This document shows, one piece after another, positions 56,395-61,096 of a stretch of 61,244 bases of DNA. Each line of letters opens with the position of its first letter. Position 1 is the first letter of the stretch. The stretch is from assembly GCA_016196755.1 (NCBI GenBank), contig JACPXC010000026.1:1-61244 (forward strand), read 5' to 3'. Under the pieces are notes generated by a model. It made no database searches. It saw only the letters and a program-made list of their open reading frames with translations, and was not told the DNA's origin. The translations under genes and the position numbers were made by a program. The DNA is from Elusimicrobiota bacterium. Its GTDB lineage: Bacteria; Elusimicrobiota; Elusimicrobia; UBA1565.

Positions 56395-56898
56395 ATGCGC
56401 CGAAAGCCGGATTGGGCGAAGACTCTAAGCGACCCCTTGAGCGGCGCCTCGCTGCTAACCGCCGGAGAAGCCGCGCACTACCTGAATTACCACCCCGTGT
56501 CGGTCCGACGACTGGTCGGCCAAGGCGACCTACGTCCCTATAAGACAGTCGGCCGGGCCCACCTTTTCATGCGCGAAGAGCTGGACCGCTTCAGATACGG
56601 CAGCGCCCGGGCCAAGGGCAAGGCGGGGGTCGAGCCTCTCCAGGCCCCCCCTGCGACGCCGTCGATGAGCCCGGAACTGAAGGCAGTGGTCACGGTGATG
56701 GTTAAGGGACGGGCAAGGGTCCACAAGCGACTGAAGGCCTTCCATTGGGAGGACATTCCGGCGCTGCGGGCCCAAGTGGACTCCCGGTACGGCAGGACGA
56801 CGTTTTGCATAACGATAGAGCTGCCGGATGGGTCCGGGTGCGAGCTGCGATTTCATCCGTCGGCCATGGAGGCGGAGCATTACGGGAAGCTCCGCTAG
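56395..56898 (+). CDS. HTH (excisionase/MerR-like) DNA-binding protein
   Basis: The 167-residue protein has a helix-turn-helix of the HTH_17/excisionase type: LLTAGEAAHYLNYHPVSVRR and LVGQGDLRPYKTVGRAHLFM (about 20-60). After a Pro/Ala linker a second domain (LKAVVTVMVKGRARVHKRLK and DSRYGRTTFCITIELPDGSG) may sense or bind a partner. It is transcribed divergently from the AAA+ ATPase across a region with GTAAC inverted repeats, so it probably regulates both genes. Its TAG and the TAG of the DUF1016 gene share CTAG. Confidence 0.82.
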   Translation: MRRKPDWAKTLSDPLSGASLLTAGEAAHYLNYHPVSVRRLVGQGDLRPYKTVGRAHLFMREELDRFRYGSARAKGKAGVEPLQAPPATPSMSPELKAVVTVMVKGRARVHKRLKAFHWEDIPALRAQVDSRYGRTTFCITIELPDGSGCELRFHPSAMEAEHYGKLR

Positions 56899-57962
56899 CC
56901 TGCACGGCGGCCGACTATTCGGCTGCCGAACTCCTCCTCCAACTCCCCCACCGTAGGCAAAGTCCCCTTGAGCTCCTCCGGCAGCGCCTTGGTCAGCCTG
57001 AAGGCTGAGACGCCTATCGGCCTGCGCGAGTCGCGCAACGCGTACTCGGCGACCAGCTTGTTCTTGGAGCGGCACAGGATGATGCCCAGCGTCGCCTTGT
57101 CGTCCGGATGCCTCATCAGGTCGTCGACCGCGGACAGATAAAAACTCATCTTCCCGGTGTACTCAGGCTTGAAGGGACCGTTTTTGAGTTCTATGACGAC
57201 ATAGCAGCGCAGCTTGAGGTTGTAGAAGAGCAGGTCGATGTAGAAGTCGTCGCCGCCAACCTCGAGGTGGACCTGCTGGCCGACGAAGGCGAAGCCGGCA
57301 CCCAGTTCCATCAGGAACTTGCGGACATGCTCGACCAAACCGCGCTCCAGTTCCTTTTCGCGAGCGTCTGCGGTCAATGTAAGAAAATCAAAGGTGTATG
57401 GGTCTTTGATGACCTGTTCGGCAAGATCAGACTGGAGCGGGGGCAGAGTCGCCTTGAAGTTGGTTACGGCCTTGCCCTGACGCCCATAGAGGCCGGATTC
57501 TATATGGTGGATGAGTATTGGCCGAGTCCAGCCATGCTCAATGCTCATCCTTGCGTACCAGAGGCGTTGATCGGAATCATCGAGTTTGTCCAATAACTCG
57601 CGGTTATGCCCCCACGGCAATTCCCCCACGGAGCGTGGGGGAATTGGGCCTAGGGCCGCCCAAGCCAGATAGAATGCACGCATGTAGCGGACGTTCGTCG
57701 GTGAAAATCCTCCTACTCCTGGGAAGCCTGCCTGCAAATCACGGGCAAGATGCTCTACGATGCCCTTTCCCCAACCATCGCTACGCTGCCGATCGACTAT
57801 CGATTTCCCGAGGTCCCAATACAACCGTATAAGCTCGCTGTTTGCCGAGAGCGAGGCCTTGATCTGCGCGGTCCTGATGCGAGCTTTGACCTGCTCGAGG
57901 AACTTCCGGTAACCAGCCGGAAGACTCAGGCCTTGGGAACCCATATCTACAAGTACGCTCAC
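56895..57962 (-). CDS. DUF1016 (YhcG-type) PDDEXK nuclease-like protein, copy 1
   Basis: The 355-residue protein has the N-terminal DUF1016 helical region (ELIRLYWDLGKSIVDRQRSDGWG and RDLQAGFPGVGGFSPTNVRYM), the motif ELPWGHNRELLDKL, and the C-terminal PDDEXK nuclease domain with DFYIDLLFYNLKLRCYVVIELK (acidic residues and E-x-K). YhcG-type proteins are found in defence contexts and with toxin-antitoxin systems. A 25-bp palindrome (57620-57644) encodes IPPRSVGEL just before LPWGHN. Starts at GTG; ATG at 57941 is an alternative. It is the first of two paralogues here. Confidence 0.88.
   Translation of the reverse strand: MSVLVDMGSQGLSLPAGYRKFLEQVKARIRTAQIKASLSANSELIRLYWDLGKSIVDRQRSDGWGKGIVEHLARDLQAGFPGVGGFSPTNVRYMRAFYLAWAALGPIPPRSVGELPWGHNRELLDKLDDSDQRLWYARMSIEHGWTRPILIHHIESGLYGRQGKAVTNFKATLPPLQSDLAEQVIKDPYTFDFLTLTADAREKELERGLVEHVRKFLMELGAGFAFVGQQVHLEVGGDDFYIDLLFYNLKLRCYVVIELKNGPFKPEYTGKMSFYLSAVDDLMRHPDDKATLGIILCRSKNKLVAEYALRDSRRPIGVSAFRLTKALPEELKGTLPTVGELEEEFGSRIVGRRAG
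57618..57646. repeat. palindrome P1, in-frame inside DUF1016 copy 1
   Basis: The core at 57620-57644 is a perfect 25-bp palindrome ATTC-N7-N3-N7'-GAAT; pairing extends one base on each side and one more to 13-bp arms. Inner arm on the minus strand: CCCCACG, loop CTC. Read on the coding strand it encodes IPPRSVGEL. Confidence 0.9.
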
Positions 57963-57983
57963 CCCCCCATTTTGGTTCCTTCC

Positions 57984-58010
57984 AATTCTGTCACAACCTG
58001 TGACAGAATT
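57984..58010. repeat. palindrome P2, upstream of DUF1016 copy 1
   Basis: The core 57985-58009 is ATTC-N7-N3-N7'-GAAT with 12-bp arms in total. The inner arm is TGTCACA on the minus strand with a GGT loop. It lies 22 bases upstream of the GTG at 57962. In the minus-strand phase shared by the other copies it would read ILSQVVTEL, but it is outside the annotated gene. Confidence 0.9.
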
Positions 58011-58043
58011 ATGAATTACCCTTTAAAAACATTACTTTCCGCA

Positions 58044-58070
58044 AATTCTCGCACAGGTTGTGCGAGAATT
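58044..58070. repeat. palindrome P3, between DUF1016 copy 1 and MATE
   Basis: The core 58045-58069 has the same architecture, with 12-bp arms. Inner arm TCGCACA on the minus strand, loop ACC. It starts exactly 60 bp after P2. In the minus-strand phase of the family it would read ILAQPVREF; no gene covers it. Confidence 0.9.
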
Positions 58071-58101
58071 GTGCAAGGGCCCTAGCCATCCGATACCTTC
58101 A

Positions 58102-58107
58102 TAAGAT
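58102..58107 (+). promoter_or_regulatory. -10 element, leaderless start
   Basis: TAAGAT ends six bases before the GTG at 58114; no Shine-Dalgarno sequence. Confidence 0.45.
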
Positions 58108-58113
58108 ATCCCC

Positions 58114-59448
58114 GTGAAGACCCTCCTGACCCTAGCCTGGCCCATCATCATCTCCCGCTCGGCCCAGGTGGTCATCGGCCTAGCCGACGCCCTGATGATC
58201 GCCCACCTGGGCGAGAGCGCCATGGCCGCCACGACCGCCGGCTCTTTGAACGCCGTGGCGGCGATGATCTTCCCGATGGGCATCGTCTTCATCGTCTCCT
58301 CCTTCTCCTCCCAGCTGACCGGCCGCGGGGACGCCGCCGGGGCGCGCCGCTACGGCTGCTACGGCCTGGCCACCTCTTTCCTGGCCCAGCTGGTGATGCT
58401 CCCCCTCCTCTGGCTGCTTCCGCACATCCTGGGCGCGCTCCACTACGCCCCTGAAGTGGAACGCCTGATGACGTCCTACCTCTCCATACGCCTGCTCTCC
58501 ACCGGCTTCGCGGTGGGCCTCGAGGCGTTGGCCGGCTATTTCGGCGGCCTGGGCGACACGGCCATCGGCATGCGGGCCAACATGGCGGCGATGGTCCTGA
58601 ACATCCTCTTCAACTGGCTGACGATCGACGGCCGCCTGGGCTTGCCTGCCATGGGCGTGCGCGGAGCGGCGCTGAGCAGCGCGCTGGCTACCTTCGGGGG
58701 CTTCTGCGTGATCCTGACGGCCTTCGCCCGCTCCGGCGGCCTGGCCTGGTCCGGGCTGCGCTGGGGCGAGTTCAAGCGCATGCTGGGTTTCGGCCTTCCC
58801 CTGGGCCTTAACTGGTCCTTCGAGTTCTACGCCTTCATCGCCTTCGTGAACATCGTGGTGGCCGGCTTAGGGACGAGCTCGCTGGCGGCGATGATGGCCG
58901 TCATCCAGATCAACTCGGTGGCCTTCATGCCGGCCTTCGGGCTGGCCAGCGCGGGCTCCATCTTGGTGGGGCAGAGGATCGGCGCCGGTAATAAAGACGC
59001 CGTCCCTGGGATCGTGAAGACGACCTTTACCGCGGCCGGCGGCTGGATGGGGCTGGCGGCGCTGGTTTATCTGGCCTTCCCTTCCTTGCTGCTCAGACCT
59101 TTCGTTTCGCCGGATACGGACGGCTCATTCTTGCGGGTGGGCGTGGGGATGCTGATGATGTCGGCGTTATGGCAGGCGTTCGACGCGGGCGGCATGACGC
59201 TGACGGAGGCGCTGAGGGCGGCGGGGGATACGGCGTTTCCGATGTGGGCTCGAGCGGGGTTGGCTTGGGGGTTCTTTTTGCCGGGGAGCTGGATCGGGGT
59301 GAGGTGGTTGGGCGGGGATGAGACGACGGCGATGGCGTTTTTGCTGGCGTATCTGGGGTTGTTGGCCATCGCGCTTTTCATCCGGTTCAGGAGCGGGGCG
59401 TGGCGGAAGATCGAGCTTGTCGAGGAGCCGTTGGTTCCTACCGCTTAG
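58114..59448 (+). CDS. MATE-family multidrug/Na+ antiporter
   Basis: The 444-residue protein has about 12 membrane helices in two bundles with MATE signatures: AWPIIISRSAQVVIGLADAL, LGESAMAATTAGSLNAV, and AFGLASAGSILVGQRIGAGN in the second half. The start is GTG with no Shine-Dalgarno sequence. The base composition of its last third shifts to G-rich runs (GGGG and CGGGG) unlike the C-rich first two thirds, although the frame is intact. It lies between the two DUF1016 genes. Confidence 0.9.
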   Translation: MKTLLTLAWPIIISRSAQVVIGLADALMIAHLGESAMAATTAGSLNAVAAMIFPMGIVFIVSSFSSQLTGRGDAAGARRYGCYGLATSFLAQLVMLPLLWLLPHILGALHYAPEVERLMTSYLSIRLLSTGFAVGLEALAGYFGGLGDTAIGMRANMAAMVLNILFNWLTIDGRLGLPAMGVRGAALSSALATFGGFCVILTAFARSGGLAWSGLRWGEFKRMLGFGLPLGLNWSFEFYAFIAFVNIVVAGLGTSSLAAMMAVIQINSVAFMPAFGLASAGSILVGQRIGAGNKDAVPGIVKTTFTAAGGWMGLAALVYLAFPSLLLRPFVSPDTDGSFLRVGVGMLMMSALWQAFDAGGMTLTEALRAAGDTAFPMWARAGLAWGFFLPGSWIGVRWLGGDETTAMAFLLAYLGLLAIALFIRFRSGAWRKIELVEEPLVPTA

Positions 59449-59533
59449 TCAGACAGAACATCAGCAGGCGCCAGAAGCCGCTCAACACGACGTGGCGCTG
59501 GTGGACGATCTGGCCGGCCGGGATGTTTCTCAT
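59438..59533 (-). CDS. 31-residue small protein (possible)
   Basis: An ATG at 59533 with GAGGAGAG nine bases upstream opens a 31-codon frame (RNIPAGQIVHQRHVVLSGFW, then RLLMFCLTKR) that overlaps the last 11 bases of the MATE gene. A hydrophobic patch near the end is possible membrane or peptide-binding sequence. The good Shine-Dalgarno sequence is the main evidence. Confidence 0.4.
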   Translation of the reverse strand: MRNIPAGQIVHQRHVVLSGFWRLLMFCLTKR

Positions 59534-59544
59534 TTCACTCTCCT

Positions 59545-59922
59545 CTAAATACGCTTGATGGTCATCATCGGGGTCCCGTCGGCCGCCCGGGTGAATCTCC
59601 GGACCTCGGGTGAGGCGAAGACGTCGATGAGCCTGTCCTGCAGTCCGGGATGGCGGGCGATGGCCGCGGCGAGCTCGACGCCCTCCGGCTCGCCGAACTC
59701 GGCCAGCAGGCGCCGCATGCGCGCTTGAGAGTCGCCGACGGTGCGGGAGAGGGCGCGCTTCTCGAAGTCGGTGAGGATGGGCTGGCGGGCGACGCGCTGG
59801 AGCTCGACTGTCCGCGCGGCTTTTTGCGAAATGGGCGCCGAGGGGGCGGGCGGCGGCACCGGCCGGTTTCCCTGCGCTCTCACGAACAACCCCGCCGCCA
59901 GCGCCAGCATCAAGAGCTTCAT
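59545..59922 (-). CDS. small exported protein
   Basis: The 125-residue protein has a signal peptide (MKLLMLALAAGLFVRAQ) and then a Pro-rich stretch (PVPPPAPSAPIS) followed by a helical domain (ARQPILTDFEKRALSRTVGD, RRLLAEFGEPEGVELAAAIA). Family unknown. It is the first gene upstream of the 31-residue frame on the same strand. Confidence 0.68.
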   Translation of the reverse strand: MKLLMLALAAGLFVRAQGNRPVPPPAPSAPISQKAARTVELQRVARQPILTDFEKRALSRTVGDSQARMRRLLAEFGEPEGVELAAAIARHPGLQDRLIDVFASPEVRRFTRAADGTPMMTIKRI

Positions 59923-59992
59923 TGTTCCCTCCCGTCATCAGAAGCATGACGGGCGGGGTTCACCCGGGGTTCACGGGGACCTCAACGGAGGC

Positions 59993-61096
59993 TCAACAAT
60001 CGGCAGCGCTGTGCAGGTCCGACAATTCCCGTCTGAGCTCGGCCGCCAGTTCCGCCTCTGTGGGCAGATATAGCTTATAACGGCTGGCGAAGATCTTCGC
60101 GCGGTTCGTTCCCAGGGTATACCGGACGACGGCGTCATTCTTATCGGTGCAGAGGATGAGGCCGAGCGTAGGGCCGTCTCCCTTCGTCCGGCGCTCGGAG
60201 TCGTAGTAGTTGACGTAGAGCTGCATCTGCCCGAGGTCTTGGTGGGTGAGCTTGCCAACCTTGAGGTCGACGAGCACATAGCACTTGAGGACGGCGTCGT
60301 AGAACACCAGGTCGACGTAGAAATGGTCGCCGTCCAGGCTGAGGCGCTGCTGCCGGGATACGAAGGCGAAGCCATTTCCTAGTTCGAGCAGGAACCCCCT
60401 CAAGTTGTCGATCAAAGCGCCTTCCAGGTTCGACTCGGCCAGCTTGGGCGACTCCGGCAAACCGAGGAATTCCATGACGACAGGGTCCTTGAAGGCATCC
60501 TCGGGCCGGCGAACGTCATGCCCCTTCGTGGCCAGCTTCATGAGACCGGCTTTGTCCTTGCTCAGAGCCAGGCGCTCGTAGAGCAGGCTGTTTATCTGCC
60601 GCTCCAATTCCCGCCCCGACCAGGCGTTCTTGACGGCCTCGATTTCGTAGAACCCGCGGGCTCCGAGGTCGGACACGCGCATAAGGCTCCGATAATGCCG
60701 CCAGCTCAGGTTTGCGTTGAGGCGGCCGGGATGCCGCAATTCGCTACCCGGTGGGTAGCGAATCGGCTCGTAAGGGATGGGTGGAGATTCGCTTCCCACC
60801 GGGAAGCGAATCTTGTTCTCTTCCAACAGCCCGGGGAAACAGACGAAGAACTGGCGGAAAAATTTAAGGTTCTGGAACGAATAGCCTTTTCCATAGTCAA
60901 CCAACAGGCGGCCAGCCAGTCCTTTCAGAATTTTCTTTCCATACTCTGCTCGCTTCTTCCCCCGCTGTTCCTCCTTGACGATTTCCCGCCCAATGAGCCA
61001 ATTTGAGATTACCTGCGCCGTATCGACCGAACGCGCCGCGTTGCGACGCGCGGACTCGATGATCTCGCTGACCCGGCCATATAAGGCGGCTCCCAT
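59993..61096 (-). CDS. DUF1016 (YhcG-type) PDDEXK nuclease-like protein, copy 2
   Basis: The 367-residue protein has the same plan as copy 1: ARRNAARSVDTAQVISNWLI, GKGYSFQNLKFFRQFFVCF, then LSWRHYRSLMRV and the PDDEXK domain with HFYVDLVFYDAVLKCYVLVDLK. Two palindromes (60739-60763 and 60787-60811) sit in frame between the FFRQFFVCFPGLL and LSWRHY parts, encoding IRYPPGSEL and IRFPVGSES. They make this insertion hydrophilic, with an IR-P-GSE pattern. It is diverged from copy 1, so the duplication is old. ATG at 61096; TAGGCT lies nine or so bases upstream. Confidence 0.88.
   Translation of the reverse strand: MGAALYGRVSEIIESARRNAARSVDTAQVISNWLIGREIVKEEQRGKKRAEYGKKILKGLAGRLLVDYGKGYSFQNLKFFRQFFVCFPGLLEENKIRFPVGSESPPIPYEPIRYPPGSELRHPGRLNANLSWRHYRSLMRVSDLGARGFYEIEAVKNAWSGRELERQINSLLYERLALSKDKAGLMKLATKGHDVRRPEDAFKDPVVMEFLGLPESPKLAESNLEGALIDNLRGFLLELGNGFAFVSRQQRLSLDGDHFYVDLVFYDAVLKCYVLVDLKVGKLTHQDLGQMQLYVNYYDSERRTKGDGPTLGLILCTDKNDAVVRYTLGTNRAKIFASRYKLYLPTEAELAAELRRELSDLHSAADC
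60739..60763. repeat. palindrome P4, in-frame inside DUF1016 copy 2
   Basis: The core is a perfect 25-bp palindrome ATTC-N7-N3-N7'-GAAT with arms of exactly 11 bp. Inner arm GCTACCC on the minus strand, loop ACC. On the coding strand it reads ATT CGC TAC ... GAA T and encodes IRYPPGSEL. Confidence 0.9.
60785..60813. repeat. palindrome P5, in-frame inside DUF1016 copy 2
   Basis: The 25-bp core (60787-60811) extends to 13-bp arms at 60785-60797 and 60801-60813. Inner arm GCTTCCC on the minus strand, loop GGT. It encodes IRFPVGSES. It starts 48 bp after P4 (core to core), separated by a segment encoding PPIPYEP. Confidence 0.9.

What the first reader, a model, noticed from the sequence alone, without database searches (positions are those of the whole stretch)
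57618..60813. A five-member family of perfect 25-bp palindromes in and next to two DUF1016 genes
Five sites (cores 57620-57644, 57985-58009, 58045-58069, 60739-60763, 60787-60811) share an invariant frame ATTC-N7-N3-N7'-GAAT. The inner seven bases are different in four of the five (CCCCACG, TGTCACA, TCGCACA, GCTACCC, GCTTCCC on the minus strand), yet every copy is perfectly self-complementary, so the palindrome itself is under selection or is copied as a unit, not the sequence. I know of palindromic elements inserted in frame in rickettsial genes (RPE), but I do not recall this one or a tie to YhcG-type nucleases.
Basis: seen in the sequence. Interest (0 to 1): 0.9.

Follow-up and report, generated by a model that had tools for sequence, protein, structure and literature searches.

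The report
Nuclease genes carrying their own recognition site
The perfect palindromes are very probably the DNA-recognition sites of the nuclease (DUF1016/YhcG) whose gene they sit in: across bacteria and archaea most of these genes carry a roughly 27-bp two-fold symmetric site whose bases change together with the DNA-reading amino acids of the encoded protein, so a large unstudied nuclease family has a readable target, and it lies in its own gene.

Summary
Confirmed, and much larger than reported. All five palindromes are real and are the only palindromic ATTC-N17-GAAT sites among 21 in the 4.6-Mb genome, which has only these two DUF1016_N genes. A palindrome at the same place, with different sequence, occurs in most of 251 DUF1016 genes from many phyla (76% versus 4.5% after synonymous-codon shuffling; neighbouring genes 6.1% versus 6.2%). 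The unit is about 27 bp; G·T mismatches are not favoured, so an mRNA hairpin is unlikely; copies are not dispersed, so it is not RPE- or REP-like. Bases -2 to -9 of each half-site covary with specific residues (89, 92, 93, 118, 121, 147, 148; also 69) with sensible contact chemistry (Arg-G, Glu-C). Ten residue-base rules hold in 608 contrasts and fail in 6, and predict held-out genes. The N-domain model resembles ParB/Noc DNA-binding domains; residues 118 and 121 align with ParB G201 and R204, which contact parS. So DUF1016_N very probably binds, as a dimer, a site inside its own gene. The nuclease active site is intact in 310 of 311 genes. The purpose of self-binding is inferred (likeliest: autogenous control or tethering). 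Unexplained: arms also change together at weakly read positions.

The parts
56895..57962 (-). Gene 1: DUF1016_N + YhcG_C PD-(D/E)XK nuclease, 355 aa
   Evidence: Pfam PF17761 E=1.5e-38 and PF06250 E=2.7e-64; catalytic D243, E258, K260 present
59993..61096 (-). Gene 2: DUF1016_N + YhcG_C nuclease, 367 aa
   Evidence: Pfam PF17761 E=1e-34 and PF06250 E=3.1e-55
57618..57646 (.). Palindrome inside gene 1 (29 bp), encodes IPPRSVGEL just before LPWGHN
57984..58010 (.). Palindrome upstream of gene 1 (27 bp, centre 35 bp before the start codon)
58044..58070 (.). Palindrome upstream of gene 1 (27 bp, centre 95 bp before the start codon)
60739..60763 (.). Second palindrome inside gene 2 (25 bp), half-site GCTACCC
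60785..60813 (.). First palindrome inside gene 2 (29 bp), half-site GCTTCCC
57684..57698 (-). Gene 1 codons 89-93 (TNVRY), inferred base-reading residues for half-site positions -5 to -9
   Evidence: covariation
57600..57611 (-). Gene 1 codons 118-121 (GHNR), inferred to read -3/-4; aligned with ParB G201-R204
   Evidence: PMC7383237
57519..57524 (-). Gene 1 codons 147-148 (RP), inferred to read -3/-2
60860..60874 (-). Gene 2 codons QNLKF (equivalent to 89-93)
60689..60700 (-). Gene 2 codons RHYR (equivalent to 118-121)
60611..60616 (-). Gene 2 codons GR (equivalent to 147-148)

Best explanation
Each palindrome is a two-fold symmetric, about 27-bp DNA site recognised by the DUF1016 (YhcG) protein of the gene that carries it. 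The N-terminal domain is a ParB/Noc-like helix-turn-helix domain; two protomers would read the two half-sites, with residues at the starts of helices (69; 89, 92, 93; 118, 121; 147, 148) touching bases -9 to -2. The C-terminal domain is a PD-(D/E)XK nuclease with intact catalytic residues. SHOWN by computation: family-wide presence, DNA-level selection, residue-base covariation that predicts held-out genes, ParB/Noc-like predicted fold. INFERRED: binding as a dimer on double-stranded DNA. INFERRED AND LESS CERTAIN (about 0.5 given binding): the protein docks on its own gene to limit its expression and/or hold the nuclease in check; extra copies around the start codon or in the gene add docking sites. 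Because the site lies between the codons that set specificity, a transfer or recombination that changes specificity tends to carry the matching site along. The confidence given is for recognition of the own-gene site, not for its purpose.
For: 251 DUF1016 genes: palindrome score of 8 or more in 76% versus 4.5% after synonymous shuffling; 313 control ORFs from the same loci 6.1% versus 6.2%. Leave-one-out pairing 89-96% at +-2 to 8, 80-82% at +-9 to 12, near chance from +-14. Covariation columns found by MI are also top-ranked at every position -2 to -8 in 141 nearest-neighbour pairs; -3/118 (3e-11) and -7/89 (4e-13) exceed all 705 control nucleotides. Base rules: R89 with G(-7) 62/65, R148 with C(-2) 153/155, K147 with C(-3) 31/31, E92 with C(-8) 23/25. 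Residue-discordant pairs: 608 consistent, 6 opposite; ten rules p 2e-6 to 2e-28 versus best of 231 control rules 2e-7. In held-out genes of at most 60% identity to training genes the rules beat majority base and nearest homologue at every position. Fold: 11 of the top 12 rows for the N-domain model are ParB/Noc/Spo0J, Z 8.0-6.5; Noc DNA-binding domain bound to NBS Z 9.0 for the full model; Pfam HTH_ParB hits 23 of 41 N-domains, best 3e-5; hhalign puts 118/121 on the G and R of ParB GHAR, positions that Jalal 2020 (PMC7383237) show to specify or contact parS. E. coli natural experiment: K89/R92 alleles have first site -8G -7C, R89/W92 alleles -8T -7G. Catalytic D-[DE]-K intact in 310/311. Extra sites near genes: 92 inside, 21 upstream, 4 downstream versus 14 in all in a shuffled control.
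Against: No binding, regulation or cleavage was measured. Window gene 1 fits the code only in part: R147/-3C fits all copies and P148/-2A the two upstream copies, but Y93 and R121 would predict -5A and -4C and the sites have C and A; the same deviation is seen in L200 and L138. Arms change together even where copies in one gene differ (mirrored 106 versus about 17 expected), which dimer reading alone does not require. Minimum p-values near 1e-7 can arise from uneven divergence, so positions -2, -4 and -5 are weak in the pair test alone. The 141 pairs and the discordant pairs are disjoint but not fully independent on the tree. Z of 8 to 9 for a helical domain can be chance (tool notes). No promoter consensus was found at the upstream sites. 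About a quarter of genes lack a clear palindrome.
Confidence: 0.86

Rival explanations
1. Self-cutting or homing-like selfish gene: the nuclease cleaves or nicks the palindrome in copies of its own gene, and repair spreads the allele together with the matching specificity codons.
For: Nuclease residues conserved in 310/311; the site lies between the specificity codons; E. coli has a divergent allele exchanged around the palindromes; deletions and an IS1 insertion with ends at or near palindromes in E. coli; presence on plasmids and phages.
Against: A gene that is cut by its own product gains nothing unless cutting is conditional; E. coli keeps the gene and its sites in most genomes; deletions are expected at repeats anyway; no empty or cut-resistant allele was found.
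Confidence: 0.2
2. mRNA hairpin: the coding-strand stem-loop is bound by the protein or regulates translation.
For: Copies often lie within the likely transcript (upstream, inside, downstream); mirrored changes at weakly read positions are what a stem requires.
Against: G.T mismatches, allowed in RNA, are fewer than A.C on the coding strand (30 versus 51; 10 versus 20); the centre is R-N-Y with -1 and +1 independent; the residue-base chemistry and the ParB/Noc-like fold point to DNA.
Confidence: 0.06
3. Mobile palindromic element (RPE- or REP-like) with DUF1016 as insertion hotspot.
For: Copies in other reading frames (L123, L129) and tandem copies show that the DNA, not the peptide, is kept and can duplicate locally.
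Against: Not dispersed: one CAGACANTGTCTG per genome in most of 17 genomes; own genome has the sites only at these genes. Sequence tracks protein residues.
Confidence: 0.04
4. Mutational by-product: quasi-palindrome correction by template switching keeps the arms identical, with no binding function.
For: Mirrored allele changes in a non-coding E. coli copy (TGCAGACAGTGTCTGCA versus TCCAGACACTGTCTGGA); 106 mirrored changes.
Against: Cannot explain fixed location across phyla, absence in control ORFs or covariation with amino acids. It may act in addition and keep weakly read positions mirrored.
Confidence: 0.02

Closest known systems
ParB-parS and Noc-NBS
   Same: Palindromic site bound two-fold symmetrically by a helix-turn-helix domain; base specificity set by few residues in helices a4, a6, a8 (PMC7383237); DUF1016 118/121 align with ParB G201/R204. 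A parS is recalled (own knowledge) to occur within spo0J of B. subtilis.
   Different: DUF1016 has a PD-(D/E)XK nuclease and no ParB N-terminal domain was found; sites are hypervariable, odd-centred, about 27 bp, and sit in or beside the protein's own gene across the family instead of near oriC.
YhcG/DUF1016 PD-(D/E)XK family (COG4804; PADLOC PDC-S02)
   Same: This is the protein family. Kosinski 2005 (PMC1189080) assigned the nuclease domain and left the N-domain unknown.
   Different: No paper found links the family to a palindrome or names its DNA target.
Rickettsia palindromic elements (RPE) and PARCELs
   Same: Dyad-symmetric DNA read in frame inside genes (PMC4316617; PMC2996958).
   Different: RPEs and PARCELs are dispersed or coding-repeat elements; these sites are confined to one gene family and match its protein.
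Autogenous operators inside a regulator's own gene (for example PurR; from memory)
   Same: A DNA-binding protein with a site in its own gene.
   Different: Here the site is in a fixed coding position of a nuclease family and its sequence diversifies with the protein.

Membership tests
YhcG/DUF1016 nuclease | DUF1016_N domain | tested here: met
   PF17761 over cut-off in both genes
YhcG/DUF1016 nuclease | YhcG_C PD-(D/E)XK domain with D...[DE]xK | tested here: met
   PF06250 in both genes; motif intact in 310/311 family members
YhcG/DUF1016 nuclease | Nuclease activity | not testable with these tools
   no biochemical data found
ParB/Noc | ParB/Noc DNA-binding fold | tested here: inconclusive
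   ParB/Noc/Spo0J fill the top of the list, Z 8.0-9.0, but Z under 13 in helical domains can be chance
ParB/Noc | HTH_ParB sequence match | tested here: inconclusive
   23 of 41 N-domains hit PF17762 (best 3e-5, over cut-off in L103); window gene 1 itself does not; hhalign E 5e-4, probability 28-33%
ParB/Noc | N-terminal ParB CTPase domain | tested here: not met
   Pfam finds only DUF1016_N and YhcG_C
ParB/Noc | Palindromic site with specificity from a4, a6, a8 residues | tested here: met
   covariation at 89/92/93, 118/121, 147/148; computational only
Rickettsia palindromic element | Dispersed in many unrelated genes and spacers | tested here: not met
REP/RAYT | Dispersed REP hairpins | tested here: not met
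REP/RAYT | Y1 transposase (TnpA_REP) | not tested
   not searched for
Homing endonuclease | Cleaves cognate site and spreads by repair | not testable with these tools
   needs cleavage and conversion assays
PADLOC PDC-S02 | Model match | tested here: met
   E 4e-145 and 1e-133
PADLOC PDC-S02 | Anti-phage activity | not testable with these tools
   candidate status only

The most novel reading that the evidence does not exclude
A self-addressed nuclease: the coding DNA of the gene is the docking site that keeps its own sequence-specific nuclease in check, so that loss, displacement or mismatch of the gene frees an active nuclease. Site and specificity evolve as one inseparable unit across bacteria and archaea, with a readable protein-DNA code.
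Probability: 0.3. Interest if true: 0.97.

Novelty: new variant of a known kind. Interest (0 to 1): 0.92.

Why it matters
DUF1016/YhcG is a widespread nuclease family without a known function; 4,393 of 5,426 complete E. coli genomes match yhcG. This work gives its N-domain a likely function (ParB/Noc-like site-specific DNA binding), gives most members a predicted target, and shows that the target lies in the gene itself. It also provides hundreds of natural protein-site pairs, a rare data set for protein-DNA recognition codes, and makes the function directly testable in E. coli K-12.

Tried and rejected
mRNA hairpin: no G-U excess. Dispersed repeat: rejected; the degenerate core NACGCANTGCGTN gave mostly background counts. 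A first attempt to find extra copies by one arm gave too many chance hits and was replaced. Orthogonality of sites among paralogues in one genome: 0 of 52 identical pairs versus about 1.8 expected, inconclusive. PDB by sequence: no relative of the full protein, weak unrelated hits for the N-domain profile. Viral scans gave few loci. NCBIfam gave no hit. The truncated E. coli allele was considered as palindrome-driven replacement, but it is near-identical in 722 genomes, so most likely a single old event.
Full report
WHAT IS THERE. The five palindromes are at the stated places and perfect. Maximal extents are 57618-57646, 57984-58010, 58044-58070, 60739-60763 and 60785-60813. The genome (4.59 Mb, 67 contigs) holds 21 ATTC-N17-GAAT sites, 3 of the reversed control pattern, and only these five are palindromes. 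It holds only two DUF1016_N genes, the two in the window. Both are DUF1016_N + YhcG_C nucleases. The core GCTWCCCNNNGGGWAGC of gene 2 occurs nowhere else without mismatch.

A FAMILY-WIDE FEATURE. Relatives were collected from genome, viral, plasmid, phage and E. coli collections. Most carry a near-perfect palindrome of different sequence at the same place, centred on the codon six before the W of LSWSHY/LPWGHN. Strong palindromes occur in a Rhodococcus plasmid gene and an IncHI1 plasmid gene, a weak one in Wolbachia phage WO. With synonymous codons shuffled inside each gene, a score of 8 or more is expected in 4.5% of genes and is seen in 76% of 251; 313 other ORFs of the same loci give 6.1% against 6.2% expected. 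A few genes carry the palindrome in another reading frame, so the DNA and not the peptide is kept. The symmetric unit is about 27 bp: leave-one-out pairing is 89-96% at +-2 to 8, 80-82% at +-9 to 12, 76% at +-13 and near chance beyond.

WHAT KIND OF SIGNAL. G.T mismatches are not favoured over A.C on the coding strand (10 versus 20; 30 versus 51), which argues against an mRNA stem. The central bases are R-N-Y with -1 and +1 independent (94 AT, 21 AC, 20 GT, 6 GC), as expected for two half-sites read separately. CAGACANTGTCTG occurs once in most of 17 genomes that carry such a site in a DUF1016 gene, so it is not a dispersed repeat.

PROTEIN AND SITE EVOLVE TOGETHER. Mutual information between half-site bases and protein columns, outside the palindrome-encoded residues, singles out residue 92 for -8, 89 for -7, 93 for -6/-5, 121 for -4, 147 and 118 for -3, 148 for -2 (numbering of window gene 1). 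The pairs make chemical sense: R89 with G (62/65), R148 with C, that is G on the other strand (153/155), R/K147 with C (70/75), V/L/F147 with A, T/S/A147 with G, R/K121 with C (77/84), R93 with C (33/37), E92 with C (23/25), W/F/Y92 with T. In 141 disjoint nearest-neighbour pairs the same columns rank first at every position -2 to -8, and residue 69 at -9. A control with 705 other nucleotides shows that divergence alone can give a minimum p near 2e-9, so -3 (3e-11) and -7 (4e-13) stand out and -2, -4, -5 do not by that test alone. The direct contrast is stronger: in pairs that differ in the residue class, the predicted base is with the carrier in 608 and against it in 6, ten rules together; the best of 231 control rules reached 2e-7 against 2e-6 to 2e-28. 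The pairs are disjoint but not fully independent on the tree. Among 57 new genes with palindromes (of 66), for those at most 60% identical to training genes, the rules predict better than the majority base and the nearest homologue at every position, with n of 22-25 per position.

NATURAL EXPERIMENTS. E. coli yhcG has three in-gene sites and one 30 bp after the stop. Most alleles have K89/R92 and a first site with -8G -7C; the divergent M1-type alleles have R89/W92 and a first site with -8T -7G, as the code predicts; the other sites of these alleles fit less well at -7 and -8. The non-coding copy shows a mirrored change (TGCAGACAGTGTCTGCA versus TCCAGACACTGTCTGGA). Window gene 2 fits the code: Q89/-7C, K92/-8G, R121/-4C, G147/-3C, R148/-2C; its two copies differ only at -5, facing F93. 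Window gene 1 fits only in part (see evidence against).

STRUCTURE. AlphaFold2 models (N-domain pLDDT 86.6, pTM 0.79) place the covarying residues at the starts of helices 67-79, 88-102, 117-126 and 147-155; the palindrome-encoded residues form the loop between two of them. The N-domain resembles ParB/Noc/Spo0J DNA-binding domains. Pfam HTH_ParB matches 23 of 41 N-domains, over the LSWSHYR...GWSVRELER stretch, and hhalign pairs residues 118 and 121 with the G and R of ParB GHAR. Jalal et al. 2020 (PMC7383237) report that ParB contacts parS through helices a4, a6 and a8 and that position 201 helps to switch specificity, with R204 also contacting DNA. The C-domain is a standard PD-(D/E)XK fold with its active site intact in 310 of 311 genes.

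HOW IT MOST LIKELY WORKS. Shown: presence, DNA-level selection, covariation, prediction. Strongly inferred: a dimer of the ParB-like N-domain binds the palindrome in duplex DNA. Less certain: the purpose. That the match is kept argues that binding to the own gene helps the gene; autogenous control or tethering of the nuclease is the simplest reading, and upstream extra copies (21 against 4 downstream) fit it, although nine of the 21 come from two arrays and some are chance hits (shuffled control 14 in all). Self-cutting for spread is the main rival.

LEFT UNEXPLAINED. Extra copies in one gene differ at weakly read positions but mirror the change in both arms (106 against about 17 expected); L135 and L205 carry upstream arrays of four to five such sites with shuffled order. 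Template-switch correction, a need for hairpin or cruciform formation, or sites matched to other specificities could each explain this.

LITERATURE. Ten held papers mention DUF1016 and none of those looked into links it to a palindrome. The library lacks most subscription papers, so absence here is not proof of novelty.

Noticed in passing
L278:5778-6600 (E. coli G3X16-2) and 722 E. coli genomes: yhcG is cut at the right edge of its last palindrome and the nuclease half is replaced up to just past the downstream palindrome by about 480 bp with a 101-aa ORF annotated 'transposase' that has no Pfam hit.
   Followed up: partly
L135 and L205, 100-270 bp upstream of the DUF1016 gene: Arrays of four to five palindromes with fixed -8T, -4A, -3C, -2C and mirrored variation at -7 to -5; the order of the units differs between the two related genomes.
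   Followed up: partly
L200 (G185:C28, same genus as the window genome): Two DUF1016 genes 87% alike outside the palindrome with different half-sites, and three flanking palindromes of another class (such as AACTTGAGGTGCCAAATTGGCACCTCAAGTT).
   Followed up: no
L194, L233, L240, L245, L249 near gene position 465-565: A second site position, between the N- and C-domains, in the ISWTKH/LPWGHN clades.
   Followed up: no
flanking control ORFs: Six of 313 control ORFs score 11 or more (about 0.4 expected); another family might carry intragenic palindromes.
   Followed up: no
L285, L283, L293, L292, L281, L280 (E. coli yhcG alleles): Deletions of 39-80 bp with ends in or next to the palindromes (one frameshift type) and an IS1 insertion at the last palindrome.
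   Followed up: partly
L299 (plasmid p8025, 4947-6011): DUF1016 gene directly between a site-specific integrase and radC on an IncHI1 plasmid.
   Followed up: no
genomes with several matches: Many split or truncated DUF1016 fragments next to full copies in archaeal and planctomycete genomes, which suggests frequent gene decay or large insertions at the site.
   Followed up: no
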